Shown here piece by piece: positions 13,501-63,683 of a stretch of 64,000 nucleotides of DNA (position 1 is its first letter; each line of letters opens with the position of its first letter). The position numbers were made by a program, and so were the translations under genes. Location: assembly GCF_964275005.1 (NCBI RefSeq), contig NC_092693.1, positions 23,587,122 to 23,651,121 of the forward strand, read 5' to 3'. This DNA comes from Diadema setosum. Taxonomy: Eukaryota > Echinodermata > Echinoidea > Diadematoida > Diadematidae. The notes under the pieces are model-generated. The model was given only the letters and a program-made list of their open reading frames with translations, searched no databases and was not told the DNA's origin.

Positions 13501-16500
13501 TGTCGGCACTGACTAACGTTGATGAAACACCCCCCGCGCGTATTTGAGGTTTGCATGCGTGCACTAAAGTGCATGCTCTAGTTTCTGCCAAGATGTGGCG
13601 CGCCGCGCAGCTGGAAGTTTATGATGTAACAAAGAGGTTTCTAAATTGGTTGGGAAATCGGGTGACTTTCAATTCAGCACACAATGCTAAAGTACGTAGG
13701 GCCTAATGGGTGGAAATCACTGATATCTCTATGGAAGAACAAGATCAGTGGTGGAAATGAGCTGCATGCTTGGCGGAGGTCTGCGCTCTCAGAGTGCTTT
13801 TCTGGTTCTTGTAATTTCCATGTTCCATTTACAGTGACTATTTTTATGTTTATGTTCGTTGTCTTCCTTTCATTGAATTGGAAAAAAAAAACAAGGCCTA
13901 TAAGAGAATATTATTCCATTATTTTCAGTTTGAAATCACAGTTAAGAGTGTCATGCACAAGTTGCATGATATCATCATCATAGAGCTACACTGTAGCTCC
14001 ATGATATCATCAACTGAAATGTGATATCATGATATGGATACAGGGTCCAGGGAGGTGATCACCTCCCTGCAGGGTCCAACATCGGTTGTATGGTAGCGGC
14101 CAGTGACCCAAGCCATGGCCACTACAAATTGATATTGAGCCACCAAATTTTCCAAAAGCTTATCTTTTGGTGGCCTGATAGGACATCTAAGATCCAAATG
14201 AATTCTTATGTTTCATCAAGTTATAATGGAATTAAAATGAATTGTTAAATATTTCATTTTATTTCTGGTCATTTCATTTGTTTTCGAGCCATTTAGTGGC
14301 CCAAAGGCAACCAGAGAAAAATTCCAATGTCGAGCCCTGTGAATAGCCTGTATACCAAAAATGGTTCGACATGAGCATGTGACCACAAGTACTGTTCACA
14401 AAGTATCCATGTGCAGAAGATTTTTTCACATTCGCTTTCACAAGCGAAAAGAGCAAAATATTCTGTATACCGAAGCATTATACTTCATGCATTGTCTTCG
14501 CATAACATCACACATTGCAACTGATTGACAAATTGCCCTAATCCTTATAGCATGCAGCGGGGTACTGGAGGTCGTAGGTTCGAATCCTGCTCGAGTATGT
14601 ACGCCCATGATTTTTTATCTTGGCAAAACACTGATCAATTCAGTGCTTATTTACGTCGATGTAGAGCAATTTGTCAATCAGTTGCAATGAAAACATCTCG
14701 ACGGAAGAATTTCATGAATTTGAATAACAAAGCAGTACCCGCTGCATGCTATAAGGATTAGAACCAACACTTGCTGTCGGGCGAAAGCTCGGTGGTCTAG
14801 TGGAGATGACGCCTGTCCGGTGATCAGGAGGTCATAGGTTCGAATCCTGCTTGAGTATGTACGCCCATTATTTTTTATCATGGCTACTACTAAAACACTG
14901 ATCAATTCAGTGCTTATTTACGTCGATGTAGGGCAATTTGTCAATCAATTGCAATGAAAACATCTCGACGGAAGAATTTCATAAATTTGAATAACATCAC
15001 ACATGTTGCCAAGATAGCTAGTTGTGATAGTTGTTTATGATACTTCTGAATGAAGATTTGATATTCAACTCTCTTTTATATCACTGGACAATGTTCAGAT
15101 TGTCACCAGTCTGCAATTTCATATGACTTAGGTTCATTTGTAATATTGTCTTCTTCCTTTACAATGTGAGTTCATAGGCTTATAAGATAGGGGAATGAAA
15201 CCCAAGTATGTACATACATTGTATGTAGTCAAGTGGATTGGGTAAATGCAGTAATACATTTTAACACATCAGCAAAGTTTGAGGGAAAGGACAATCTGTT
15301 CTTGAAACAGAATTGTTAAAGTTTCAGTGCCACCATCACTAGATGATGAGACTATTCCAGACCATAATGTCACAGATGGAAAACAGTATATAAGTCAACA
15401 AAAAATATCATTTTTCATGGAATAACACATTCCCTCAACTTTTACTAACATGTCAAAGGGTAAGTCTAGTGCTCTTTTACTATGCTGGAACTGTGAGAAT
15501 ATGTTGAATTTTCTTTGTATATTTTCTGTATATCATTTTCCATCTGTGAAGTCATGATCTGTAAGTCATCTCACCCAGCAATGGTGGCACTTAAACTTTA
15601 ACAATTCGTTACTTTTGATTGAATAGACTGCCCGGTTTCTCTCAAATTTTGCTGATGCATTCTATATTGCTGCATATACTTGATCCACAGGTATATATTT
15701 GGGTGTCTACCTCCTTTAATGTACAGTTCTCTGTAGTATAGTGTAAGGATGAACAAATGCATGCTGGCGGACTCAATGGAAGACCCTCCCTGTCAAGCAT
15801 GACTGATCTCATTGTAAATAATGCTTGCATACCATGGTAATCAGGGACATTGTACCTGTGCATGCAGTATAAACATAAAGCCCTCAATTCTGTGACAGAT
15901 ACTGTACCTGTCTTCTTCCTCTTTTTTCATTCCCCCTCCCCCCCCCCCCCCCCAAAAAAAGCATACAATTATACTTCATGTCATTCTGTCACTTCCAAAC
16001 TGGCCATAATCATCCATGGACCTCCTTGTTGCCATTGATGTCATAAAGTATTTTAAACACACGCACAAACACATATTGCACCAGCAGAAGGGCATTATCT
16101 TATTGATAAAACAGAAGATAAGAAAAAGCTTGAGAGGTAAACTGAAGGTACAATTGTAAGCCTGCCACTTTGATTTTTTTTTTAAAGAAATTTTCTGTGG
16201 ACATGATTCCAGACATATAATTATTTCACATCCTGCAGCACATAAATTGATGATGCCATAGGATTTGTGGAATTTGTTGTGATCCTTGACAGATAAACCA
16301 ATTGTGACCGTGCATCACAAAAAGTCGCACCGAGTTGATCTTGTGTGAGAACTGAAAATTGGTGAAATGGGTCAGCTTAGCCAGTTTTAAGATTTTCATA
16401 TTTTCTGAAAGAGCAAATCTTCTTCTTTATAGTGCTAAAGTTTGGGATCATAAAACAGAATGGAAATTGTGTTTTTAGCAGTTTTTCTTGATCACTTTTT

Positions 16501-17222: not shown

Positions 17223-20200
17223 ATTGCGATCGCCCTTCGTCCAGCGTCCGTCGTGCGTTGTGCGTCGTGCGTCGTGCGTAAACTTTTTACATTTTCATCT
17301 TCTTCTTTAGAACCCCATGACGGATTTTCACCAAACTTGGCAGGTAGCATCCCTAGGGGGATAGAATCTCAATTTTTCAAATGAGCACCACCTGGGGGGC
17401 CCCTGGGGGGGGGGGGGGAGCCCAAACCCCCTAAAATTAAGGAATCTTTAAAAATCTTCTTCTATAGAACCAGAAGTGATAGGGCTTAGTTAATACTATG
17501 AGTTAGTACATTGATGACTGTAGTTTCAAGTTTGTTCATGGGGGAATCAGGGGTGCCCCCCTTGGGACCCAGGGGAGGGGGTTGGGAGGGGTCCTAATGG
17601 GGACTAAATTGTACATTTTCATCTTCACTTGGAGATCCCCATGTCTGATTTTCACCAAACTTGGTAGGTAGCATCCCTAGGGGGGATAGGATCTCAATTT
17701 GTTCAAATGGGCACCATGGCCCACCTGGGGTCCCCAGGGGGCCCAAACCCCCTAAAATTAAGGAATCTTTAAAAATCTTCTCTAGAACCAGAAGTGACAG
17801 GGCTTAGATAATACTATGAGTCAGTACATTGATGACTGTAGTTTCAAGTTTGTTCATGGGACTGGCGGAATCACAGGTGCCCCCCCCCCCCTTTTGGGAC
17901 CCAGGAGAGGGGATGGCGATGGGTCCTAATGGGACCTGAATTGTACATGTTCATCTTCTTTTTGAAAACCTCATGATGAATTTTGACCAAACTTAGCAGG
18001 TAGCATCCCTATGGGGATAGAATCTCAATTCCTTCAAATGGGCACCATATCCATCTTGGGGGCCCCTAGGGGGCCCACCCCCCCCCCCCCACACACATTA
18101 AGGAATATTAAAAATCTACTCTAGAACCAGAAATGATAAAGCAAAGTTAATACCATGAGTTTGTACATTGATGACGTTAGTTCCAAGTTTGTTCATTGCA
18201 GATCCAGGGCTGCATGCCCCCCTCCACCCTGGAGTTGAGGAGGGGGGATCCATATATGCAGACCTAAGTTTCCAATGTTCTCAGGTATGAGTGTGCAAGA
18301 ATGCATGGAAGGTGAAATTGTGATACTCGGGTGAGCGCGTGACCCCCGGGTCTCTTGTTATTTCTTAACCCTTTGCACAGTCTTAACTCTCAGCTCTAAT
18401 AACTTAGGAAAAGATGATGCCACTGCTTTGAAAGTTGGCAGTAAACATGAACAAAGTGTGTTAATAAAGTATACCCAATTTCAGCTTAATCTGATAATCT
18501 CTTCATTGTTGTTGCTCAGATGATTTACATCCTGTTTTTGTCACATTCATCCACAGCTAGCATGGCTAAAGATTAAGTGCTTGAATAGACCCTGTACTTC
18601 AGAGCCTCTTTTCTCAGTTCACACTTTTCCAGAGTGTGTGCTTTTTTTCAAGCATTTAGATGGCTTAATAGGAGTGTCTATTTGAGCTGAGTTATTTAAG
18701 CTTAGAGTCTGCTCTTTCATAATCTGCCCTTAACTAAAAATCCATGCATGGCGACTTTTTGTTGGTTTTGTAATGCAGGTCACAATTGATACTCTGGAAC
18801 ACCTGAAATATTATACACTAAACAAGAATGATTACATGTACACCACTATACACACAAGTGAGTTATTACAATATCTATATGCATTTAAGCTTATAAGCCA
18901 GTTCGGGGTTCCAGTTTGAGCATGAGCAGAAAAAGGTCATTTGTACCGAGAGATAAGTTGCTTTTTAAATTCACTGAGATAAGCATAGATCTGTAATATT
19001 ATGATTATTCATGTAATCCTTATAAATCGTGCCATCCAGTACATCCACCTGACAGCAAGCCTGGTATTTGGCAATGTTAATAGAAAATGTTTGTTAATGT
19101 ATTCAAAACAGCACAATGAAATGGATGCTTCCCAAAGTGTTGATTGACGAACCATTCTGGTCACTTTATCTACACAGGTTCATTTTTTGTTAGAATACGA
19201 GTTCCATAAATTGCTATGTTGGGCAAGCTACTGCATTATGTCGCTTTGAATTGAGTGAAGTGCCTAACCAACTGAGAAAAATGAAAGGTCATTTGTACCC
19301 ATGTGCACATGAGCTATCTCCAAACTGGCTTATTGCCCCACCCCACCCCTTCATACAATCACAGATCATCATTTAGGCCTATTAAATGTATCGGCCAACA
19401 TAGCTACAGTAAACTACACTGTAGTTGTTGTGCAGCTGGTGCCACTGGGCAGTCATAGTGGCCTGTTGTATGTCCTCCAGGAGAAGCCAAGTCAGTAGTC
19501 ACTAGTCTCCTTTAGGCACAAGTTCACTATACTTTCTCATTGTGGGGTTTTCCATTTGGTGGCTATTGGCAAGTGGTTATTATAAACAGGTGGTCACTAT
19601 AGCAGGTGTGACTGTATCTAATGAAATTTTTAAAATGTGATTACATTTGAACAGCTATGAATTGGTCGTACTGAGTACAGAGTTTCAGAATTCATAGTAC
19701 TTGATTGGACTGAAGAATAAGAAATCACAATGAGCAAGGATAATGACATGGCAACTTTATTTGAAGAATGTATGAGGGGGGGGGGGGGTCAAGGAAGCAG
19801 AACAAAAGAAGAAAACACACATGAACTACTGTGGATGAACTTGTTAAGCAAGTGGTATTGTAATGGAAATACATTGCTGCATTTCTGAAATATGTGAGAG
19901 CCTCTTATATCATCATCCAGGGTGTTCCGTGTACTTTGTTTAGGGTTTTCAAAGCATTGGTTTAAATCTTTTTGGACAACAGTAAATTCCACAAGTCTAC
20001 ACTATACACGAAGTTGTCGATTTACTAGTACATGACGTGAAATTATGAAAATTGTCTGGACTTCTGCCCCTTTGCACATGTTCAAGGTCAAAGGTTGTGG
20101 TCAAATTCTTAAAATTTCATTATTTCCCCATATCTCTGCAGTATCTAAGGGTATTTTCATGAAACTTGATAAGAGAGGGCCAGATACATTCAAGGTTGGA

Positions 20201-29200: not shown

Positions 29201-32200
29201 TAGTTTATACATTTAAGCATATTGAAAGACAATGAACAAATATCTTAAAATGTCACACCACCAGCATAGTTTCATGTCATATGGGTAGTCAATCTTTACA
29301 CATTACATTCAAGATCCACTGTCTAGTATGCATGTAGTCTAAAGTACTTGAAGGACAAGTTCACTTTCATAGACTTGTGGATTGAGTGAATGCAGCAATG
29401 TTGGTAGAATACATTGGTGAGAGTTTGAGGAAAATAGGACCATCCGTTCAAAAGTTATGAATTTTTGAAGTTTATGCTTAGTCACTACTGGATGAGAAGA
29501 CTACTACAGCTTGTGATGTCACATGTGTAGAACAAAACATCTCGACGGAAGAATTTTCATGAATTTGAATAACAAAGCAGTACCCGCTGCATGCTATAAG
29601 GATTAGAACCAACACTTGCTGTCGGGCGAAAGCTCGGTGGTCTAGTGGAGATGACGCCTGTCCGGTGATCAGGAGGTCGTAGGTTCGAATCCTGCTCGAG
29701 TATGTACGCCCATGATTTTTTATCATGGCAACTACTAAAACACTGATCAATTCAGTGCCTATTTACGTCGATGTAGGGCAATTTGTCAATCAGTTGCAAT
29801 GAAAACATCTCGACGGAAGAATTTTCATGAATTTGAATAACAAAGCAGTACCCGCTGCATGCTATAAGGATTAGAACCAACACTTGCTGTCGGGCGAAAG
29901 CTCGGTGGTCTAGTGGAGATGACGCCTGTCCGGTGATCAGGAGGTCGTAGGTTCGAATCCTGCTCGAGTATGTACGCCCATGATTTTTTATCATGGCAAC
30001 TACTAAAACACTGATCAATTCAGTGCCTATTTACGTCGATGTAGGGCAATTTGTCAATCAGTTGCAAATATAAGGGAAGTATAAAGAAAATTCAGCATAT
30101 TTTCACTTTTCTCGCATAATAAAAGAACACTTGACTTGCTTCTTTCAGAAGGCAGGGGGAATACCTTAACATACGTCAGTGACAAGTTGAAGAACTGTGC
30201 ACTTTAAAAAAAAAGAAAATTATGTGAAATTATTTTAAATCTTTATACGTATTTTCCTTATATCCTTCTACGCTTGTAACATCATACACTGTAGTAGTCT
30301 TCTCATCCAACAGTGACTACGCAGATAATTTAAAAGTTCATAACTTTTTAAAATGGATTGTCAGATTCTCCCAAAACTGATGTGTTCTACTAATATTGCT
30401 GCATTCACTCAATCCACATGTACCCACGGTATATATATGAAGGTGGACTGGTCCTTTAAAAATGTTGTTATTGCTATGTGATTTATGGCAGTGCACTTTA
30501 TGATTTTTTGCAAACCTGATGACTTAACAGGGGGTACTCAGCAACATGGACTTCTAAAATACACTGTTTCATAGAAAATTTTCAGAAGCAATATTTATGA
30601 TTCAACTTAGCTTTGCTCATGGGACAAATGTACTAAGGCTCAGAGCATTGTATTCACTACTGTGTGGTGACTGTTGTTTGGGTCACTGTGGTATACTTCT
30701 GAAAGAAAGTTCTTGATGCGTGTAAGTGTACTGGACATTGTGGTGTGAAATTCAATTTGATGGTTTTGTCTATATAGTTCCAAATAACATGGTAAGTATG
30801 AGTGCATTGTACAATTTGTGTTTCACATGTCACTTGTGTATTGCTCCTGCACATAATCACGTATCTTGTATATCAGCCATAGGTCTTCTGAGAGCTGTGT
30901 TCAACACGGTGCCGTTTGGGTTAAGCATTGAGCTGTTTGGATCCTCTCGCACTGCCGAGGCGTCTACCCTCACCATGTTCAGCTACGGCTCAGGATACAT
31001 CATCGGATCAGTCATTCCAGGTTAGGTTACTTCCGCTCTACCTCTCTATCCCTTCCCCTCCCCCTCCTACCCCTCTCTTGCTCTCCTTCCTATTCTCAAA
31101 CACACCCTCCTCCCCTCCCCTCTCTATCTCTCAATCAATTTTTCCCTCTATCTCTTCCTACCCCATCCCCCTTCTCTCGGCCTATCTCTGCCCTCTTCTT
31201 TCTTCCCCATTCTCATCTTTACCTCTCTCCTTCTCTTGCTCCCCTCCCCCCATTCTCTTCCTACCCTACCAATTCTACCCTACCCATCTCCTCTTGCTTT
31301 CCTCCTCCCCTGAACTCCTCCCCTCCCCTCTCCTCCTCTCTCTCTTCTTTTTCCCTTTATCTCTTCTTCCCTCCCCATCCTACCCTTACTCCCCTCCTCT
31401 CTGCCTAAGTCTTTCTTCTTTCTTTCCTTCTATTTCCCCTCTTTATCTCCTCCCCTTTGTTCTCTCTCTCTTCCTCCCCTCCCCATGTTACCACTTCTCT
31501 CCTCTCTCCCTACCTTTACCCTGTTTCTCTATTGCTCATTCTCCTCCCAACCCCTCCCCTCTCTCCCCCCCCCCCCTCCCCATCCTACCCTTACTACTAT
31601 CCTCTTCTCCAGGCTCAGTCAGACTAGCGAAAAGATTGAGGAGTGTAAGATCGTGAAGTCATAACAATCTCTTGTCATCCTTTCACGCTGGCAGCCAAAC
31701 TTCTCGATCTTTGGATCAAGAATTTTGAGTCATAAGAACGCTTGCGCAAGAAAGAAGAAAGAGTGCACCGTCTGATTGCCAGTGATTGAAACGTTACAAT
31801 GAACTCCTGTATAACACAGTAGCCATGTGCTTCTGTGTCACCACCCCGAAAACAGGTGGTGGACTTGTCACGTGACAAATATCGCAAAGTTTCAGTTTTT
31901 AGTAGTCACACAAAAGATCAAGAAGTTTGGTGGGGGGTGGGGGAAATATCCCTAGTTTCACAAGAAGTTTTTACGGGAAATTTTGTGGGAAGTTTGCAGT
32001 CACACTGGCAAAACTTTGGGATCTTAAAGATCACAGTCTTAAACTTCTTGATCTTTTGCAAGTGTCTTTCTCTCCTCCTCATCTCCTCCCTCCCCCACTC
32101 CTCTCCTTTCTCCTTCCCCTCTCTCTCTCTCTCTTCTTCCACTTCCTCATCTCCTCCCTTCCCCACTCCTCTCCTTTCTCCTTCCCCTCTCTCTCTCTCT

Positions 32201-51400: not shown

Positions 51401-54400
51401 GCCCCCTTCTTCTCTCCCCCTCCCCCTCCACCTTCCCCCTCCTCCCACTACCACCCCTACAAGAGACACTGACCATCTCTTCTCCTGCAGGGCCTGGAAA
51501 GCAGTCACATAGTCGACCGGCTGCAGGAACTGGCACAGGATGGCCGCCTGGGTGTGGCACTGGAGCTGGGAGCAGCTCTTGATGCAGCGCCGGTAGACCT
51601 GCTCCGACCACACCCCCTTTGGGACCGGAGACTCAAAGAAGTTGGAGGAAACCATGGCAGCCTGGAGGTAGAACTTGAGGGCCGCACCATACTGCTTCTT
51701 GGCTGATAGGGGTCCAAGCAGAATGGATGTGGAAGATGGGTTATATTCCTATATTCCAAATGAAGATGTTCTTTTGCTTGATATATATCTTTTCCTCATT
51801 TTCACTTGTATTCTAATCAGTGATCATAAGGATGACAAAAACATGAAATATACTCAGACTATATTAACTATTGTCATAATCTTTATCAGTTTATATTTCA
51901 TGGGAAGAGTTTTTCCTGTATGTATTTTCATAATCGTTTTGAATACAGTCATTAAATCTTCACTGTCATCATCATTCTCATTAAAGAAATTAGAAATGAA
52001 CTCACCATAACATGCATCAGCCTGAGTGCACAGCCAGGATGGGTTCTTGGGGTCAACGGCTAATGTGTGACCTATGACCTCCATGGTGGTAGCTGTCACA
52101 GCTGTGACGTCTATGGAACTCTTACTGTGAGAATGAAGAGAATACAACATAAGAATTATAAGAAACACCTTTGATCATGAGGTGCAGTTGGCTTGTGCAT
52201 CCCACATCCTTGGTACTTACAAAGGAGTTTAGATCATGTGAATGCAAACCTACAGCACTTCAAACATGACCTATCACTTCAGGGTCTTTCGCAACAGAAA
52301 ATCATGTTTTGAATGCGGCTCACTTGTCAACAGGGTGTGTTAGTTTGTTCTGGTATTGGTCCTTACCACAGAAATTCATAGAAAAACATGAATATAAACC
52401 ATAATTCCACTCTATAAAGTTGTTGTGCATGCATAAGACTCGGCACAGCAATAGCATACCTGTCAACCCTAAAACTTAGTAAAGAGAAAATAACTGGGAG
52501 AAAATGGTGCAAACCTATGAATTTTTACCCATCTCCCATACATCACAATCAGCACGTGCTGACAAAACTAGGAACACCACATTTAATAGATCTTCTTCTT
52601 TTCTCAGAAATACACATAGAAATGTATCCATTTACCAGAAACACTTGGCAGATAAGCAATAGTGAGCCAGGCAAAAGCAAAACATAACCACAAAAAAAAA
52701 ACTGCAAAAGAATAAAACAAAACCACAACCAAACCAAGATGTCCTTCAATGCTGCACTCATAATGTAATGTGCAGTATCAACTTTAGGAGTGTTTCATTT
52801 TCTCGCATAAAATGGCACAAGAGTGCAATTGAATATTATTCAAAACTCACTCAGTGTTCCCCAACACTCATTTGGTGTTATCCAAAACTCACTCGGTGTT
52901 ATCCTACACTCACTTGATGTTATTCCACACTCACTTGGTGTTACCCAACACTCACTTGGTGTTACCCAAAACTCACTTGGTGTATAATTACCCAACACTC
53001 ACTTGGTGTTACCCAAAACTCACTTGGTGTTACTCAAAACAAACATGGTGTTACTCAAAACTCACTTGGTGATGGTGTTGGGCCAGAGGGCGGGATACTC
53101 GTGGGTGATGCTGTTAGGCATGTCGTCCTTCAAGATGTTATACAGCTTGACGAGGCAAGACAAGAGCAAGCTGAGACATTTGGGATCGTACAGCGCCCTC
53201 ACAAAGTTGACAAACTCGACCCTGTGAGGCGAGAGTAGGAGAAAAGCATTAAAAAGCCAATCTAGGCATGCGCATTGCTAGAGAGAGTTTGTCTTATATT
53301 CCTCACATTCTCTGAAATGGAATCAGCGATAATATGCTTTATGCTATAGTGCCCTTCTGTTATAATGAATGCAGTTATAATGAAATTTCGTAACTAGAAA
53401 GTAGAAACACAGGTCCCAAAATTATTATCTATATATCTCTATATCCTCTTATATTTCAGCTGTAACAAAATTTCAATGCAATGGAAGAAAACTGCCACAC
53501 CCAAGGACTTGGGGAGTCGGCTGTATCAAGCAATGAAGCTGCAGTGGCTGCGGGTATATAGTCTCCACTCATGAACTCAACCCCGAGGGGAATTTTATTA
53601 TAACTTATTTGCAAAAGTCGTCTCTTGACGAGGCACCAAGGTAGTTACGTGGTGGACATTGCAAATACTAAAAAAAATTCAAAGAATTAACCCTGAATGC
53701 AGGTAGAAGGGGAAAATGTAGCATCTCTATCATGTAGTTTCATAAAATCTAGTCAAATATTGCACACTATTTTTTGGTCTATTCACCATAGGTCCACATA
53801 AGTAATAGTCTCATGGATATGTTTGTTTGCCAAAAAAAAAGAAAGTTGTCAGGCACAAAAAAAAAAATTCAAAGAATTAACCCTGAATGCAGGGTATTAA
53901 AGTTTTCACTGCCATGGTAGCACGCTCATAGAATTTTTATTTTTTTTTTTTAAATCTATAGAAGAGAATCATCAATATGTTTCACACCAAACAAACTAAA
54001 TCCATAATGCTTGAACACTTCAATAGACCAATCGTCAAATACCACTTGCAAAAACTGATGATTTTCAGCAAACTCTGGCCACTCAAACAGAAACTTTAAA
54101 AGTTTGCAATTTTTTTTCTAATACTGTCAGATTATCATCAACTGTTCACTTTTTTGTGTATACATGTATTACTGTATACGCCATATATTTCGCGAGTCTA
54201 AATTTTCGCGAATCGGGACTTCCCTACAATTTTGCGAGTGGTTAAATTCACGATCGTGGAGTCTTTTACATTTATATCGGCATTAGAGTCAATATTTTCG
54301 CGTGTCTTTAATTAAGCGAATAGCAGCTGACTCGTGAAAATAAAAACCTCGTGAAATATTCAGCGTATACAGTATCATGCCCAGCCCGACCAGACGCCAT

Positions 54401-57400: not shown

Positions 57401-60400
57401 TTGCTGAAGTCTAAGTCAAACACAAAGATGCAATGTTCATCTGCTTTCATCTCCAAACCTGTTGAAGACGAGTCCCGAGAATACTCGGGCAGGTGTCTCT
57501 GGGAAATGCATGTTGTAACAAAATCTGTCCATCCTCAACAGGTTAAGAACTCGAACTTCGACAATAAAGCAGTGTCTTCTGTTCTCTGCCTGTGTAGTAA
57601 AATTCTTTACCTTTTTCTCTATGCAGTGATGAGCTTTGACCAGGAGAATGAAGAGGTAATCCTGCATCAGACGGTTGCCCATTCCCTCAATGATGAAGCC
57701 ATAGGTTCGGTCTACTTGCCACTGGTTTGGAGTTTAATCAGAGAGAAGCAGCAAACATATTAGAGGAGAATTTTAATAGTCGAACTATATTCTTAAACAA
57801 CAACACAAAACCCCAAACAAAAAATAATTTCTCGGTGAATCTGTGGAACCAGAAGCATCAGCTCAGCTGCTTGCACAGAATATGCGAATTTTCATGGATA
57901 TTATTTGATAGCAATGTTGAGGGTGATGATTATGATCACTCTTTTCATTGCTGTCATTTTTTTTTTATTATAATTATCATTACTATCATCATTCTTCATC
58001 ATCCTTCTTTTTCTACAAGAAGAGAGAACAAGATTCTTCTCCAATTTGTCTACCCTCTGTACAAATGAAATTTGTAAGAGCGCAACTGCTGATCTACACC
58101 TGTAGCGAACATGTCAGACATGTATGTTAAAATGTAGATCAGCAGTTGCAAAATTACAGATTTCATTTGTACAGAGGGCAGACAAATTGAAGAAAACTCA
58201 TATCTCATATCCTCACCCTTCTGCTTAATAATCTCTTGCTTTCAGTTAAGGTTCGTCTTGTTCAAATTACTGAATTCTTGCATCGAGTTGTTTTGATTGC
58301 AACTGATTGACAAATTGCCCTACATTGAAGTACATAATGTTCATGTAGGGCATTTTCATCATTACTCATCATTACTTCTGTTATCATTACTTTGCTGCAG
58401 ACAGCCGAGTGTTGCCTCCAGCTCCACAGGATTATCAACATCATCATCATCATCACCGTCATCACCATCTTCATCATCACCATCATCATCGTCATCATCG
58501 TCATCATCATCATCACCATCACCGTCACCATCATCACCATATCACCATCGTCATCATCATCACCAACACCATCACCATCACCATCACCATCATCATCATC
58601 ATCATCATCCTCGCCATCATGATCGTCACCACCATCGCCATCATCATCACCATCACCACAATCACCATCATCATCGTCATTCTTTTTAAGTCCTTACCTT
58701 GCTGCAGACTGATAAGAAGCGGCGATTGGGTGCGATCCTGTGGAGTGATTTGAGCACCGCCTCAAGCTCCACAGGATTCTCTGTCAGTAGGAGCTGTAGC
58801 TCAAGCTGACCCATCTGGAGTGGGAGGTTGTCTGCAGGGTGACAAGGTTTGACAAAGTCTCGGTACAAGTAAACAAATGTGGTGACTGTCGTGAAAACCT
58901 GTAATGAGTGACACCATTTCTAAAGAAGAGTACCTTTGAAGATAAGTGTGGCAATACACTAGTAGAATTGAAAGCCACCGATGAGGTAAAATACACAAGA
59001 AATTGGTTTTGCACTGAAAAACAGTTATCATCATTCGAATGAGAGTAAGGTATTTCAGATGGCATGGGCAGGGCTGCACACTAACCCAATTTTTCTACTG
59101 GTCCAACCTGTCTGTTGGACCAGCAGGTACCCAGTTTTCCCATTTTTTACTGGTCCATTTATGAAAAAGTTACTGGTGGGACAGTGATTTTTACTAGTCC
59201 CGGACTGTCGGACCAGTGCTAGTGTGCAGCCTTGGCATGGATGTCTAAAGATGTCCTTGTCATTTGACTGCAATAAAATTGCCGTAGCATTGGTTTTGAA
59301 CCCATGAAAACATATGCACTAACTTTTTTGTTTGTCAGTCCTGACATACAAGAAGCCACATGTTGCCAATAATATATCTTGAGATGGGCCAGGAAGAAAA
59401 CGTTTCATCTGAGTGGATGTGACGTACATGACAGTTCCTTACATACATAATGAATTAGGATAACGCTTCAAGTCAAGTCCACCTTGTGTCTCTACAACAC
59501 ATACTTTGTGCATGCACACATTATTACATCTGCTACCTGACATTTGAAAGTCAATGCTCTCTAAATACATCTGCATTATCTTCTTTACACTGCCATCTCT
59601 CGGCATGGTTCTCATAATCACTGCTCCCATTTTCAGGATTGTCGTATGAAGGGAAAATTCCCCTTTTTCATTGTCTACTGAACATGCTCCGAATGCTGCG
59701 GAGAAGTTACAGCAAGAAGTAAACTGACTGAACACAAAGACAGAGTAAGATTAAAGCAACCTAAGTTGGAGAGACAAACTGGCTGAAGGAAAAAGGCTCA
59801 GTCGGTCAGAGAGGAGTGTTCTAACTAACTGCCCACCTGTCTGACTGGCCAGGGCTGTGTCCATCCTGGTCATCTGGTGGTCATCTGTCCTCTGGCTAGC
59901 ACGCATGGCCTCCATGTCCGGAGCAGAGAAGAGTTCATTGGGGCAGCACTCCATGAGCTGTCGACCCAGGTCTGGCTGACTACACAGCATCCTGCTCCCA
60001 ATAAAGGAAAACGAGTCCTGCAACATTTATTCTCCTTTTCTTCTCTCACACACTTGAAGGTTACTCTAAAACATGATATCTTCACGGCATGAAATTTTCA
60101 CGAATGGGAGCCGATGGCCTTATTTGCAGCAAGAAATTTTCGCGGGTTGCCTCTAACATTCAATGCATACGGTGTAGACAAGATCTTTAATGTGCATTTT
60201 AATTTCATGAAACTAGGCTCTCGCGAAATTCACAAAATCTAACTGCATGTGAACATTCCTTGTTTTACAGTATCTTCATTAGACTTTTTTTGGGGTTTTG
60301 TTTTGTAGCTGTTGTTTCAGGGGTCTGTCTGTGTGTTTGAGAGTACATTTATTCATGTACAAAATTTAGCCCTTTTGATAGTGGCGAGATGTGCAAAGTT

Positions 60401-63384
60401 GATACCAGCTTCAATACTGACTGATGCAAGCCACTTGGGGGTGTCATACAAAGAGATCCATACCAACTTCACCTGTTTTCCATAGCGCTTGTAGGTAACA
60501 CCACTTTGCCAGGTTTGCACAATTATAAAACTATTCGAGGGAAATTAACCCTAACTAGGCCGGGCTATTTAGGTAGTTGATAGAGCCGGGGGGGGGGGGG
60601 CCTCCCAGGCCCCCCCTCCAGATCTCGGCCGTCGACCGCGCGATCGCGACAAAAATTGGCACACACATTGCCTATGATGTAATCTAAAATACCATGAAGT
60701 TAATTTTTCAAAAAAATCATCATTTATGCTAAATTATGCTAATTTATGCATGATGATGCATAAAATCAGACTATTTGGTATAAATCACCAAAAAAAGCTC
60801 AAAAAAGGTACATTTTTTGTGTAAATAATCTTTTTAGTGTCCTTAGCAAATGTAATTAAAAAAAATTGTGATATCAGAAAAAATTCTGAAGTATTTTATT
60901 GTTTTTTTGAATTTCTTATGTATTTCATTGTTTTTTCGACTTTATGTTTTCCATTGTTTTTTCGATGAAATTTGTCCGCGACATCGCTCCGAACAAGAAA
61001 ATATGTTATTCATCGATTTTAATCAATAAAACACTGAAATAATCATGCTTTTATGAAATTTGCCAGTAAGCACAGTTTGCATTGAAATTGTACACGAATT
61101 AACGTTTTTGAGCAATTTTTGGTCTGACATGCATGTACATATTTATGCGTAACTTCCGAACCGCGTGCCCGGGCGTCGCAAATTTGGTGTCAAAAGATGC
61201 GGGAGACTCGAAATAAAAAAGTCATGAAACGTCGCGGCGATAGCTTTTTGCGATTGCGATACATCGCGCGGAACGTCGAGGGGGGGGGCCTCGGAGGCCC
61301 CCCCCCCGGCCTAGTTAGGGTTAAGTGGACATCTTTTGATGTGCATGCCCTGTGAGTCTCTCCCACATAGGACCTTTCTGTTTTGCATGTCCCATCATGT
61401 GAGAAAATATGCTGCAGTTTAGGAAGCAAGAACAAAACGATAACACAAAGCACTGCACAAAAGTGGGTCTCACTCGGCCACAAATCAAACTTTTTTTTTT
61501 CGAATTTAGCATTTCTTTCCAACATCCATCCAACAAAGCTTGAACAAAATACAAAGCATGCATTACAAAGACATTATTTCATCAACTTCATTGACTTGAT
61601 CACAGGTTTGAAAGCCAGAAGGGAGTAACGCAAAGAGATGTTTAAAATTTTGGCCTTCCGCTAGCTCTCATTGGCCAGTATTTTAGACACGACTCATTCT
61701 TAATTCTTCCAATGGGGCAGATGTCTTTTTACCTGAGTAACGACTTGATGTTACGTTTCTGATCTTCTTTCTCTGTCGACAGAATCTTTTCAATGCACTG
61801 TGAGGAGGGAGAGATAAGTGAATCACATTTCAGTTTGTACACAAACATTTTCCAAATCATGTTTTTGGTTGGAAATGTAGGCACTACAACCCCTTCCCCC
61901 TAATAGGCATCATGACTACATTACCAAGAGACATCCGCAATTGGATGCGCAAGATACAATGTCTTCGTGTTGATTTAGCATAAAAAAAAAGTAAATGGAG
62001 CAAAGATTGGTCTATGGGAGACCTCATTACCTCATCTCAGTGGCATATAATGTCTTTGTTACTATTACAAAATGATGAAGCAGATCCTAATCAAATGATT
62101 GGCTGGCCAGGTACCTATTTTGCTTAGTGCATAATTTTGCCTATGACTAGTCATTAGTATACAAATAATGACTGCTATGAGGGGCACAGTTAAAATTATG
62201 GGCCCAAGGTGATGTGAAAACCATAACTATGCCCGAAGCAAAGCTGAGGGCATAGTTATGGTTTTCACATCACCGAGGGCCTACATAATTTTAAATGTGC
62301 CCCGAATATCAAGCTGTCATTATTTGTTTTATATACCGAAAATATAGATTCCGAAATATAGATACCGTAGCATTCGTAATCAACGCTGATCGACAGCGCG
62401 GCGGTCGTATCATTGGTGCGTACATGATTGTGATCTATGTGTACGTGGTTGCGACTGTCTGTCTCCAAACGTATTTACAGGGCACAGTCAATCAACTGTG
62501 CCCCGGGCACAGTAAATCATGACGTCATTTTGATTAACAATGGGGCACAGCTATTTTCAAGACTCCCCTTTTAACCAATCAGATGAGAGGATTCTATATA
62601 TGAGGTATACAATAAAGTATAATGACTGGTCATTAGCACTTTCACGATGCATTTGAAGTTAGATGTGACCTAGTAACATACAGACTTTGAGATGAGGGTG
62701 ATCCATCAAATGACAAGGATGTGCTTCATCATTGTATGAAACAACTAATGCACAATACTTTGTTCAGCATTAGCATTATTACCAACACTCTGTACCTTCA
62801 TAACAGTCCAAACACCCTCTGCTATTGCCTCGTGCATGTTACTGTCCCAAAGGTATCTCATGTGGGTAACTCATACTCATAAAAGCCCTTACTGCTCTGT
62901 ACAATTTGTGCTTTATCACTGTTTGGTGGAAACATGCAGAGCCTTGGAATTACATAACTCTCTTATTTTATGTCCCATTCTGATGAAACTTCAGCAAAGT
63001 CTCTCGGCACATTTTCCTTCTGTTCATCAAGGCTAATTTCAGCACTGCACACACTTTTGAGAGAGACATATCCCACCTGTGCGAAGAACTGAAATGTGGA
63101 AGTCGAGCCACCCATCAGAGCCGCCTGCAGCTGATGGATGCTGGGCCGGCCCTCCGCCGCCCACCGGACCAGATTGCACAGGGACACCTGCAGCTTGGTC
63201 TGGGCGTCGGCCACTGCAGACAAGGCCAGCTTGTCCCCGAGGCACTCCCGGTACCACACGGACAGCTCCTGCTGGGCGTTGTCCTCCAGAAGGATAGGAA
63301 CAACACCCTTGTGAAGGGGAATAAGGTCATATCTTGATGAATTCAAACACATCTCTCGTACTTTAAAGGGTGCATACTTCCCTC
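48314..63384 (-). CDS. INTS8: Integrator complex subunit 8, C-terminal ~700 residues (5' end outside window)
   Basis: Fifteen exons with compatible phases join into one frame ending TGA at 48316-48314; the last fourteen give 610 residues after exon 1 of this window. INTS8 is a helical-repeat subunit of the nuclear Integrator complex, which cleaves nascent snRNAs and promoter-proximal transcripts; with INTS6 it anchors PP2A. The C-terminus fits the family closely: WDLAILEFLIH, HHKRSEVDKK, QPELNTCN and RKRQQKFLQAMAKQYL in order. Vertebrate INTS8 is ~995 residues, so ~280 N-terminal residues, including the PP2A-binding region, lie to the right. No frameshift or stop is seen in the 14 downstream exons. 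The 5' border of the first exon is uncertain because it adjoins a repeat array. Convergent with the transporter gene. Confidence 0.92.
48431..49074. other. INTS8 last intron, no feature recognised
   Basis: AT-rich, no transposon or exon recognised. Confidence 0.5.
49075..49118 (-). CDS. INTS8: INTS8 44-nt exon
   Basis: The acceptor is GAACAG| and the donor GCAGCA|GTGAGT. Completes a split His codon and codes THHKRSEVDKKQAA, matching the conserved HHKR motif near the INTS8 C-terminus. Too short to stand out without the protein alignment. Confidence 0.88.
49384..49605. mobile_element. MITE, TACTGTATA/TTCGCG family, copy a
   Basis: Left end TACTGTATAAGCTGTTATTT followed by TCGCGAGG; right end CGCGAAAGTAACAGCGTATA followed by CAG. 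The interior repeats TTTTCGCG and its complement. Related element at 54170-54375. Confidence 0.8.
49910..49994. mobile_element. 85-bp MITE with TTAA target duplication, copy a
   Basis: CCTGTTGAAGATCAG at the left and TCCTCAACGGG at the right, flanked by TTAA at 49906-49909 and 49995-49998. Same length as the copy at 57458-57542. Confidence 0.85.
50537..50601 (-). CDS. INTS8: INTS8 65-nt exon
   Basis: The acceptor is CCCAACAG| and the donor TATCC|GTATCC. Codes YDGSDALYDCFWDLAILEFL; the WD(V/L)xILE(Y/F)L motif is a family landmark. Phases 2 in, 1 out agree with both neighbours. The opposite-strand open frame of ~180 codons here is a shadow. Confidence 0.9.
50602..51473. other. INTS8 intron, with a polypyrimidine stretch
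   Basis: About 51350-51470 is C/T-rich on the + strand (purine-rich in the transcript) right after the donor of the upstream exon. No other feature recognised. Confidence 0.5.
51474..51702 (-). CDS. INTS8: INTS8 229-nt exon
   Basis: The acceptor is CTATCAG| and the donor AGATG|GTCAGT. Codes AKKQYGAALKFYLQAAMVSS through IKSCSQLQCHTQAAILCQFL to AFQALQEKR: TPR-like helices near the C-terminus. Confidence 0.9.
52006..52124 (-). CDS. INTS8: INTS8 119-nt exon
   Basis: The acceptor is TTCTCACAG| and the donor TATG|GTGAGT. Codes NKSSIDVTAVTATTMEVIGH to WLCTQADACY. Confidence 0.9.
52843..53065 (-). repeat. Tandem array of splice-donor-like ~21-bp units
   Basis: Read in the INTS8 direction, about ten units of consensus AACACCAAGTGAGTGTTGGGT follow the exon ending at 53066. 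The real donor (ACCAA|GTGAGT) is itself the first unit, and the exon end (AACACCATCACCAA) resembles the unit. Eight downstream units keep GTGAGT; two have lost it. Confidence 0.9.
53066..53221 (-). CDS. INTS8: INTS8 156-nt exon (donor abuts the tandem array)
   Basis: The acceptor is CGCCTCACAG| and the donor ACCAA|GTGAGT. Codes VEFVNFVRALYDPKCLSLLL through LYNILKDDMPNSITHEYPAL to WPNTIT. Reading through the donor meets TGA at once. Confidence 0.9.
53347..53522. mobile_element. pogo/Tigger-like MITE, degraded copy c
   Basis: Contains TTATAATGAAATTTCGTAAC, GAAAACTGCC and CCAAGGACTT in the order of copies a and b, with eroded tips. Confidence 0.6.
53523..55124. other. INTS8 intron
   Basis: Holds two copies of CAAAGAATTAACCCTGAATG (about 53678 and 53869), the MITE at 54170-54375 and a hairpin at about 55000-55045 with stem CAGCCCTGTCGC / GCGACAGGGCTG. 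A 66-codon - strand frame at 54673-54873 has no splice or family support. Confidence 0.5.
54170..54375. mobile_element. MITE, TACTGTATA/TTCGCG family, copy b
   Basis: Left end TACTGTATACGCCATATATT followed by TCGCG; right end CAGCGTATACAGTA. Matches 49384-49605 in plan. Confidence 0.8.
55125..55312 (-). CDS. INTS8: INTS8 188-nt exon
   Basis: The acceptor is GCATACACAG| and the donor ACGAG|GTAGAT. Codes IGSLVAFCMRDDPADSNKCR, VAKELWNAVTLIFST and a Thr/Ala/Asn-rich linker. Confidence 0.9.
55383..55417. repeat. (TAA)n microsatellite
   Basis: About ten trinucleotide units in the intron. Confidence 0.85.
55659..55771 (-). CDS. INTS8: INTS8 113-nt exon
   Basis: The acceptor is ATCCCACAG| and the donor TGGAGA|GTAAGT. 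Codes DRDIPTREPVLEQCILFLLN to GELPMPFWR. Confidence 0.9.
55856..55880. repeat. (GT)n microsatellite
   Basis: About twelve GT units. Confidence 0.9.
56144..56339 (-). CDS. INTS8: INTS8 196-nt exon
   Basis: The acceptor is TATTTTTCAG| and the donor AGTG|GTGAGT. Codes NYDAARDHLEAACKATRETS, LRNELLYVQLLRLAEQKGAM and TQKVQVCLLGNRS: TPR-like helices. Confidence 0.9.
56450..56730 (+). repeat. Dispersed repeat, copy b
   Basis: Same order of phrases as 44770-45060 (GTGTGCCACATTATTCTGAG and following). Confidence 0.7.
57458..57542. mobile_element. 85-bp MITE with TTAA, copy b
   Basis: CCTGTTGAAGACGAG at the left, TCCTCAACAGG at the right, TTAA on the right and a degraded CAAA on the left. Same length as 49910-49994. 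Confidence 0.8.
57611..57721 (-). CDS. INTS8: INTS8 111-nt exon
   Basis: The acceptor is CTCCAAACCAG| and the donor AAAAAG|GTAAAG. Codes WQVDRTYGFIIEGMGNRLMQ then DYLFILLVKAHHCIEKK. Phase 0 at both ends. Confidence 0.9.
58033..58195. mobile_element. Palindromic MITE with ~70-bp arms
   Basis: Arms CAATTTGTCTACCCTCTGTA continuing to CAACTGCTGATCTACA, repeated as the complement on the right with few mismatches. Central loop ~30 bp. No coding. Confidence 0.85.
58432..58685. repeat. (TCA/CCA)n microsatellite
   Basis: About 250 bases of imperfect ATC/CAT trinucleotides; the Ser- and His-rich frames over it are artefacts. It ends just before the donor of the next exon. A SINE 3'-end fragment (about 58299-58327, - strand) lies upstream. 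Confidence 0.95.
58698..58831 (-). CDS. INTS8: INTS8 134-nt exon
   Basis: The acceptor is CACCCTGCAG| and the donor AGCAAG|GTAAGG. Codes DNLPLQMGQLELQLLLTENP to LHRIAPNRRFLSVCSK. Confidence 0.9.
59070..59235. mobile_element. Palindromic element, GCTGCACACTA ends
   Basis: GGGCTGCACACTAACCC at the left and TAGTGTGCAGCC at the right, with internal inverted CTGGTCC / GGACCAG motifs. Confidence 0.7.
59537..59677 (-). CDS. INTS8: INTS8 141-nt exon
   Basis: The acceptor is ATGTTCAG| and the donor TGTCAG|GTAGCA. Codes VDNEKGEFSLHTTILKMGAV through MQMYLESIDFQMS. Confidence 0.88.
59837..59991 (-). CDS. INTS8: INTS8 155-nt exon
   Basis: The acceptor is TTGGGAGCAG|; the upstream AG at GTTGCAG is out of phase with the previous exon. 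The donor is CAGACAG|GTGGGC. Codes MLCSQPDLGRQLMECCPNEL to MTRMDTALASQT. Confidence 0.88.
60062..60273. mobile_element. MITE, TACTGTAAAAC family, copy b
   Basis: The right end reads CCTTGTTTTACAGTA. Interior phrases GGGAGCCGATGGCCT and GTGTAGACAAGA match 46001-46183. Confidence 0.75.
60549..61320. mobile_element. piggyBac-like MITE with perfect TTAA duplication
   Basis: A 772-bp element with tips CCCTAACTAGGCCGGG and its complement, flanked exactly by TTAA at 60545-60548 and 61321-61324. Each end then carries a G/C run (GGCCTCCCAGGCCCCCC type). The interior is AT-rich with no transposase. TTAA plus CCC tips are typical of piggyBac. Confidence 0.88.
61733..61797 (-). CDS. INTS8: INTS8 65-nt exon
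   Basis: The acceptor is CCTCCTCACAG| and the donor ACTCAG|GTAAAA. Codes CIEKILSTEKEDQKRNIKSL L; the leftover AG joins G of the next exon to give Arg. Confidence 0.88.
62158..62336. mobile_element. Long hairpin element
   Basis: Arms of ~80 bp: ACAAATAATGAC..GAGGGGCACAGTTAAAATTATG..GGTGATGTGAAAACCATAACTATGCCC and the inverse, with a ~13-base loop (GAAGCAAAGCTGA). The GGGCACAGT motif recurs to ~62600, so the repeat may extend further right. Confidence 0.8.
63077..63384 (-). CDS. INTS8: INTS8 first exon in window (5' border uncertain)
   Basis: The donor is GCACAG|GTGGGA. The certain part codes IPLHKGVVPILLEDNAQQEL, then VWYRECLGDKLALSAVADAQ, to TFQFFAQ. I place the acceptor at CACTCAG| (63385), but the first ~30 residues lie in a degenerate repeat; acceptors ending AAAG near 63361 or CAAG near 63332 are alternatives. 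Confidence 0.75.
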
Positions 63385-63683
63385 CTGAGTGATAGGAACA
63401 CCCTTGTGAGGGGAAAAGGGTCAAATCTTGATGAATTCAAACACATCTCTCGTACTGTAAAGGATGCATACTATCCTCATGAGTGATAGAAACAGTACAC
63501 ACTTATGAACGAAAAGGGGTTATACCTTAATTAATTCAAACACATCTCTTATACTGTAAAGATTTCATACTTTCCTCATAAGTGATGGGAACAATACCCA
63601 TGTGAAGGGGAAAAGGCAGCGACTTGATTACTTCAAACATATCTGTTTTTGTAAGGGGTACAAACTTCTCTCCTTTTAAAAAA
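63290..63683 (-). repeat. Four degenerate ~96-bp copies of exon-derived sequence
   Basis: ATTCAAACACATCTCT or a close variant recurs at 63341, 63435, 63534 and 63630 (periods 94, 99 and 96). Copy 1 runs into the INTS8 exon. The far copy (63601-63683) has the cleanest frame: EKFVPLTKTDMFEVIKSLPF, then PLHMGIVPI, resembling PLHKGVVPI of the exon. Copies 2 and 3 carry frameshifts and stops. Confidence 0.75.

What the first reader, a model, noticed from the sequence alone, without database searches (positions are those of the whole stretch)
52843..53066. A splice-donor has been tandemly amplified: eight decoy 5' splice sites follow an INTS8 exon
Seen: in the sense of the gene, the exon end and donor ACCAA|GTGAGT are the first unit of a ~21-bp tandem array (AACACCAAGTGAGTGTTGGGT). 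Eight further units keep GTGAGT, and two have lost it. Reading past the true donor meets TGA immediately, so use of any later donor would put a stop in the INTS8 mRNA. Known: clustered 5' splice sites compete for U1 snRNP, and premature stops trigger decay. Inference: the array could be neutral expansion of a junction, a U1-binding buffer, or a switch lowering INTS8 output. A repeat unit that spans an exon-intron junction is unusual.
Basis: partly seen in the sequence, partly recalled or inferred. Interest (0 to 1): 0.8.

Follow-up and report, generated by a model that had tools for sequence, protein, structure and literature searches.

The report
Splice-donor minisatellite in echinoderm INTS8
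In a gene of an echinoderm, most likely a sea urchin, a short stretch that includes the end of an exon and the signal for splicing has been copied about ten times in a row; it looks like a neutral repeat of a kind first described in amphioxus, here with many intact decoy signals.

Summary
On the minus strand the INTS8 exon end ACCAA|GTGAGT is the first unit of an 11-unit, ~21-bp array (53073-52838). Eight of ten later units keep GTGAGT; units 2 and 10 have lost it. The spliced protein aligns without a gap across the first donor to human INTS8, so the first donor is the real one; each of the eight decoys would give an immediate TGA.

"Unusual" does not hold. Tandem duplications of exon-intron boundaries are known in amphioxus as "mirages", reported not to disturb splicing. 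This INTS8 gene has two further junction copies: an acceptor-side array at exon a and a degraded donor copy after exon d. Three of 27 junctions against 1.2 expected from local tandem duplication is no shown enrichment (small sample). Donor letters are not clearly better kept than the rest of the unit (p 0.09), though 8 of 10 intact donors is a hint. The RNA has no unusual fold.

Best reading: a neutral, locally born mirage-type minisatellite, with the first donor used. A regulatory role is untested, since no RNA data or relatives were available.

The parts
53066..53221 (-). INTS8 exon i (..EYPALWPNTIT + AA of a split Asn codon)
   Evidence: phmmer to 7cun_H residues 756-803; spliced match without gap at the junction
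53060..53065 (-). true 5' splice site GTGAGT, in unit 1 of the array
   Evidence: of the 9 GTGAGT only this one keeps the frame, and the join aligns to human INTS8
53053..53073 (-). unit 1, spanning the junction (8 exonic + 13 intronic bases)
53032..53052 (-). unit 2, donor lost (GTTTGT)
53011..53031 (-). unit 3, decoy CAA|GTGAGT
52990..53010 (-). unit 4, decoy CAA|GTGAGT
52964..52984 (-). unit 5, decoy CAA|GTGAGT, preceded by a 5-base insertion (52985-52989)
52943..52963 (-). unit 6, decoy CAA|GTGAGT, identical to unit 4
52922..52942 (-). unit 7, decoy CAA|GTGAGT
52901..52921 (-). unit 8, decoy CAA|GTGAGT
52880..52900 (-). unit 9, decoy CGA|GTGAGT
52859..52879 (-). unit 10, donor lost (ATGAGT)
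52838..52858 (-). unit 11, decoy TGA|GTGAGT
52006..52124 (-). next INTS8 exon j (acceptor tctcacag|TAAGAGTTCC)
63293..63616 (-). second junction-spanning array in the same gene: ~94-99-bp units, three extra copies upstream of the true acceptor of exon a (exon begins 63307, cacaAG|GGTGTTG)
   Evidence: TRF, copy alignment, junction scan
58357..58436 (-). third case: one degraded copy of the end of exon d and its donor (true donor at 58697), beyond a GAT-type repeat (58434-58680)

Best explanation
This is a neutral, locally born minisatellite of the 'mirage' kind. A ~21-bp segment across the INTS8 exon-intron junction was duplicated in tandem, and the copies then multiplied and diverged. The exonic part of the first unit is held by the coding sequence (shown: the spliced frame and the Asn shared with human). 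Inferred: the first donor is chosen almost always, because it is the one attached to the defined exon. Rare use of a decoy puts TGA straight after the exon, so those mRNAs would be degraded. The cost is then small enough for drift, or array turnover, to keep the repeat.
For: The first donor keeps the frame and the human alignment. The only 5 matches to the unit at up to 2 mismatches in the 913-Mb genome lie in this array (the reversed control gave 1; the tool warns that its counts are lower bounds), so it probably arose in place. Units 3-6 are nearly identical, units 2, 7, 8 and 11 differ most from the majority unit (unit sequences), as expected of tandem turnover. Local tandem copies are common: of 49,077 positions in 7 stretches of 10 kb from large contigs, 4.5% have a copy of at least 18/24 within about 600 bases and 0.9% lie in arrays of at least 5 copies. 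Three of 27 INTS8 junctions reach 18/24 against 1.2 expected (P 0.12; without the given donor 2 of 26, P 0.33). Donor letters differ in 3 of 60 cells, the other columns in 21 of 150 (Fisher p 0.09). RNA fold z = +0.78. Amphioxus mirages are reported not to interfere with regular splicing (passages).
Against: Eight intact donors in 10 units is more than the 4.0 to 4.8 expected from divergence of the other columns (P 0.013 with all columns, 0.044 without the two-state column 15), though units are not independent. Of 21 circular six-base phases, the donor phase and its neighbour are the best kept (8 of 10). The true donor and all 8 GTGAGT decoys have the same predicted U1 duplex energy, -5.4, so U1 pairing does not explain why the first would be chosen. 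The junction sample is small (27), so a moderate enrichment would be missed. No RNA, allele or relative was available.
Confidence: 0.84

Rival explanations
1. Poison-splicing switch: decoy use rises under some condition, adds TGA, triggers decay and lowers INTS8.
For: All 8 decoys give the same immediate stop and equal the true donor in predicted U1 pairing; the donor hexamer is kept in 8 of 10 later units, more than the 4.0-4.8 expected.
Against: No significant excess conservation of the donor columns (p 0.09). The stop is automatic for a phase-2 intron starting GTGA. Two other junctions of the gene carry copies without obvious purpose. Amphioxus mirages are reported silent.
Confidence: 0.05
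2. U1 buffer or enhancer: clustered U1 sites strengthen recognition of a donor with A at -1 and -2, or suppress premature polyadenylation, without being cut.
For: Eight U1-pairing sites within about 220 bases after a donor that pairs at 6 positions (-5.4, against -11.8 and -11.9 for two full-consensus donors). General knowledge of U1 in suppressing 3'-end formation (recalled).
Against: No conservation or expression evidence. Three other donors of the gene also begin GTGAGT (exons f, j, m) and showed no local copy of 16/24 or better.
Confidence: 0.07
3. Assembly error: the repeat is an artefact or its copy number is wrong.
For: Tandem repeats are often misassembled (general knowledge); no reads were available.
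Against: At ~240 bases the array is shorter than a long read (general knowledge), and its units are distinguishable (9 different sequences in 10 later units).
Confidence: 0.02

Closest known systems
'Mirage' minisatellites of amphioxus (Adh3, globins BflGb6 and BflGb9, troponin C; similar repeats in PGBD5) - PMC3087553 and PMC3902484, passages seen
   Same: Tandem units spanning a 5' or 3' exon-intron boundary; many but not all copies keep splice signals; both boundary types occur, as in this INTS8 gene.
   Different: Host is an echinoderm, not a lancelet. Eight intact decoy donors within about 220 bases at ~21-bp spacing; the globin units are 150-160 bp, the Adh3 units 10-72 bp. Splicing and length variation were not testable here.
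[quoted passage not shown] title seen in two reference lists, and one citing line in PMC3618361; details recalled)
   Same: A minisatellite that multiplies donor sites at an exon end (as recalled).
   Different: As recalled, a 12-bp unit in which some donors are used and add amino acids in frame; here every decoy would give a stop.
Internal tandem repeats at exon-intron boundaries in human duplicated genes (PMC2812944, passages seen)
   Same: Tandem repeats crossing boundaries and offering alternative splice sites.
   Different: Those vary in number between paralogues and can form new introns; nothing of that kind was seen or tested here.

Membership tests
mirage minisatellite | tandem, minisatellite-like repeat | tested here: met
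   TRF period 21, 10.8 copies
mirage minisatellite | unit spans a real exon-intron boundary | tested here: met
   unit 1 holds 8 exonic and 13 intronic bases; boundary fixed by spliced alignment
mirage minisatellite | many but not all copies keep the splice signal | tested here: met
   8 of 10 later units keep GTGAGT
mirage minisatellite | regular splicing is not disturbed | not testable with these tools
   no RNA data; of the 9 GTGAGT only the first leaves an open frame
mirage minisatellite | length instability between haplotypes | not testable with these tools
   one assembly; one array found
poison-exon or alternative-donor switch | alternative product carries a premature stop | tested here: met
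   all 8 decoys give ITK*
poison-exon or alternative-donor switch | the alternative sites are conserved by selection | tested here: inconclusive
   3/60 against 21/150 differences, p 0.09; 8 of 10 intact donors, P 0.013-0.044 with units treated as independent; no relatives
poison-exon or alternative-donor switch | decoys are used in RNA | not testable with these tools
   no transcripts held

The most novel reading that the evidence does not exclude
A U1-sensing feedback loop. Integrator, of which INTS8 is a subunit, makes the 3' ends of U1 and other snRNAs (established knowledge, recalled). If free U1 is plentiful, the donor array is multiply occupied, a decoy is used, the INTS8 mRNA gains TGA and is destroyed, and Integrator output and thus U1 supply fall. 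The array would be a U1 meter placed in a gene needed to make U1.
Probability: 0.02. Interest if true: 0.85.

Novelty: new member of a known kind. Interest (0 to 1): 0.3.

Why it matters
If the reading is right, junction-spanning minisatellites are not a lancelet peculiarity but a by-product of tandem duplication that also occurs in echinoderms, here at three boundaries of one gene. The locus is also a natural test of splice-site choice: one exon faces seven donors with the same nine letters (CAAGTGAGT, the true one included) and two that differ only at -3 and -2, so whatever picks the first must be position, structure or exon context rather than U1 pairing strength.

Tried and rejected
Relatives: the search for homologous proteins with the exon (no candidate) and with the four-exon protein (150 candidates, none at E 0.001) found none; the genome tool says no relatives of this genome are held. 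So no cross-species test was possible.

Selection on decoys: column permutation p 0.09 and circular phase 1 of 21, or 3 of 21 without unit 1; Fisher p 0.09, 0.19 without column 15: not enough to claim selection, though the retention count (P 0.013-0.044) leans that way. RNA structure of the array: z +0.78, rejected. Predicted unpaired fraction is 0.58 at the true donor and 0.08 to 0.59 at the eight decoys, two of them at 0.58 and 0.59: no clear explanation of donor choice.

Genome-wide donor arrays: three AAGTGAGT with gaps of 8-38 bases gave 11 rows, 5 places by my grouping; the reversed control gave 93 rows. AGGTGAGT gave 20 rows, 6 places; control 29. So the donor words are not over-represented in such arrays; the control words contain TGAG repeats, so I draw no depletion either. 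Of the 4 other AAGTGAGT places, one (C18) lies on the antisense strand beside an SMC3 donor; there the array starts within bases of the donor, but a 24-mer across that donor has no copy of 15/24 or better, so a junction-spanning unit is not shown. In the other three I recognised no exon at the array start, by eye only (one search had looked at the wrong place in L033, mended). The 6 AGGTGAGT places were not examined.

Junction scan: my first list had two wrong acceptors (exons c and d); I re-derived them by frame and repeated the count, with the same three junctions at 18/24 or better. At 17/24 it is 4 of 27 against 1.9 expected (P 0.12), at 19/24 2 of 27 against 0.96 (P 0.25). The exon e donor (17/24) and exon l acceptor (16/24) I count as background. 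Two of the 27 junctions (exon a0) lie outside the window. Missing from the 27: the donors of exons g and l and every junction upstream of a0. The null left out low-complexity 24-mers (the junction probes were not filtered) and used 7 of the 19 stretches (one at a contig's first bases); the mitochondrial one and 11 from small contigs were dropped. An earlier coarser null gave 4.45% at 18/24. Tandem-repeat coverage over 21 stretches, small contigs included, is 8.1%, and 6.3% for periods of 12 or more.

Full report
What is there. On the minus strand the window holds INTS8 exons from exon a (63307) down to the C-terminus at about 48.3 kb, human residues about 345 to 995; earlier exons lie in the adjoining sequence that I fetched. 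The exon at 53221-53066 matches human INTS8 residues 756-803. It ends ..ATC ACC AA|GTGAGT, and from 53073 to 52838 eleven ~21-bp units lie head to tail, the first of which includes the exon end and the donor. Eight of the ten later units keep GTGAGT; unit 2 has GTTTGT and unit 10 has ATGAGT.

Which donor is real. Exon j begins at 52124 after ..ttctcacag. Joining exon i at the first donor gives ..WPNTIT-N-KSSIDV.., and the joined four-exon protein aligns to human INTS8 (7cun_H) at E 1.3e-59 with no gap at the junction and with the Asn in place. Each of the eight GTGAGT decoys would give ..ITK and a stop. The stop is a consequence of a phase-2 intron that starts GTGA.

The organism. Contig C102 (15,708 bases) looks like a mitochondrial genome. 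Its first 9,990 bases carry ND1, ND2, COX1, tRNA-Arg, COX2, tRNA-Lys, ATP6 and COX3 in that order, with long frames under table 9, the echinoderm code (the protein genes were named by me by eye). From recall this is the sea urchin order, which some sea cucumbers share; I write echinoderm, most likely sea urchin. The species was not identified.

Is it special in this genome? The only 5 matches to the unit at up to two mismatches fall in the array (reversed control 1 match; counts are lower bounds). But local tandem copies are common. I took a 24-mer across each of 27 INTS8 junctions and looked for a second copy within about 600 bases. Three junctions have a copy of 18/24 or better: this donor (9 further places at 16/24 or better), the acceptor of exon a, and the donor of exon d (an earlier list with two wrong acceptors gave the same three). 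Of 49,077 positions in 7 stretches of 10 kb from large contigs 4.5% reach that mark, so 1.2 of 27 are expected (P 0.12; leaving out the given donor, 2 of 26, P 0.33). Arrays of at least 5 copies cover 0.9% of those positions and 1.25% of 10,045 positions of the INTS8 gene body. No enrichment at junctions is shown, in a small sample.

The two companions. Upstream of exon a, units of ~94-99 bp repeat the end of the intron, the acceptor and roughly the first 26 exon bases; of three extra copies one keeps CAAG|G, one has TAAG and one has lost the AG. The boundary rests on the previous exon ending NYK and on the human protein continuing in step. After exon d, beyond a GAT-type repeat, lies one degraded copy of its last part and donor (blastn pieces of 21/23 and 35/46 identities, E 7e-05 and 2e-04 in a 721-base search). 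Another array, on contig C18, starts within bases of an SMC3 donor, noticed only because its other strand carries AAGTGAGT; an ungapped 24-mer across that donor has no copy of 15/24 or better, so it is donor-adjacent, not shown to span the junction.

Do the decoys matter? The predicted U1 duplex is -5.4 for the true donor and for all 8 decoys, against -11.8 and -11.9 for two full-consensus donors. Donor columns differ from the majority unit in 3 of 60 cells and the other columns in 21 of 150 (p 0.09; 0.19 without the two-state column 15); 8 of 10 intact donors against 4.0 to 4.8 expected gives P 0.013 to 0.044 if units are treated as independent, which they are not. Among the 21 circular six-base phases, the donor phase and the one before it are the best kept. 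This is a hint, not a demonstration. The array RNA folds no better than shuffles (z +0.78).

What is known. PMC3087553 (abstract and passages) describes 'mirages': minisatellite-like tandem duplications of 5' or 3' exon-intron boundaries in amphioxus globin and Adh3 genes, with splice signals in many but not all copies, length instability, no interference with regular splicing by the authors' account, and a proposed role in intron gain; it adds that the copies could act as cryptic sites. PMC3902484 (passages) adds troponin C and PGBD5. The human IFI6 minisatellite with multiple donors (Turri et al. 1995) I know from its title in two reference lists and one citing line and from recall. PMC2812944 (passages) treats internal tandem repeats at human exon-intron boundaries. 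Two searches naming sea urchin or echinoderm and two for mirages listed no paper whose title points to such a case in echinoderms; they cover only open papers with those words.

Verdict. The INTS8 array meets the three features of a mirage minisatellite that could be tested; two could not be tested. The evidence favours neutral tandem duplication across a junction, with the first donor used and stray decoy use removed by decay (both inferred). It is a new member of a known kind in another group of animals, notable for eight intact decoy donors. The boldest reading not excluded, a U1-sensing brake on a subunit of the complex that makes U1, has no positive evidence.

Noticed in passing
window 63293-63616: Acceptor-side junction array (~94-99-bp units) upstream of INTS8 exon a; whether its unit occurs elsewhere in the genome could not be tested (search not answered).
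   Followed up: partly
window 58357-58680: GAT-type repeat followed by a degraded copy of the end of INTS8 exon d and its donor.
   Followed up: partly
L034, about 1500-1617 (contig C18): 19-bp array starting within bases of a donor of SMC3 (..SQD|GTAAGTGTGAACAG); on the other strand some units carry AAGTGAGT.
   Followed up: partly
window 29534-30067: Perfect 268-bp tandem duplication, each copy with a predicted tRNA-Thr(GGT); a third such tRNA at 14785-14859.
   Followed up: no
window 17288-18196: 332-bp tandem repeat, 2.8 copies, 81% matches.
   Followed up: no
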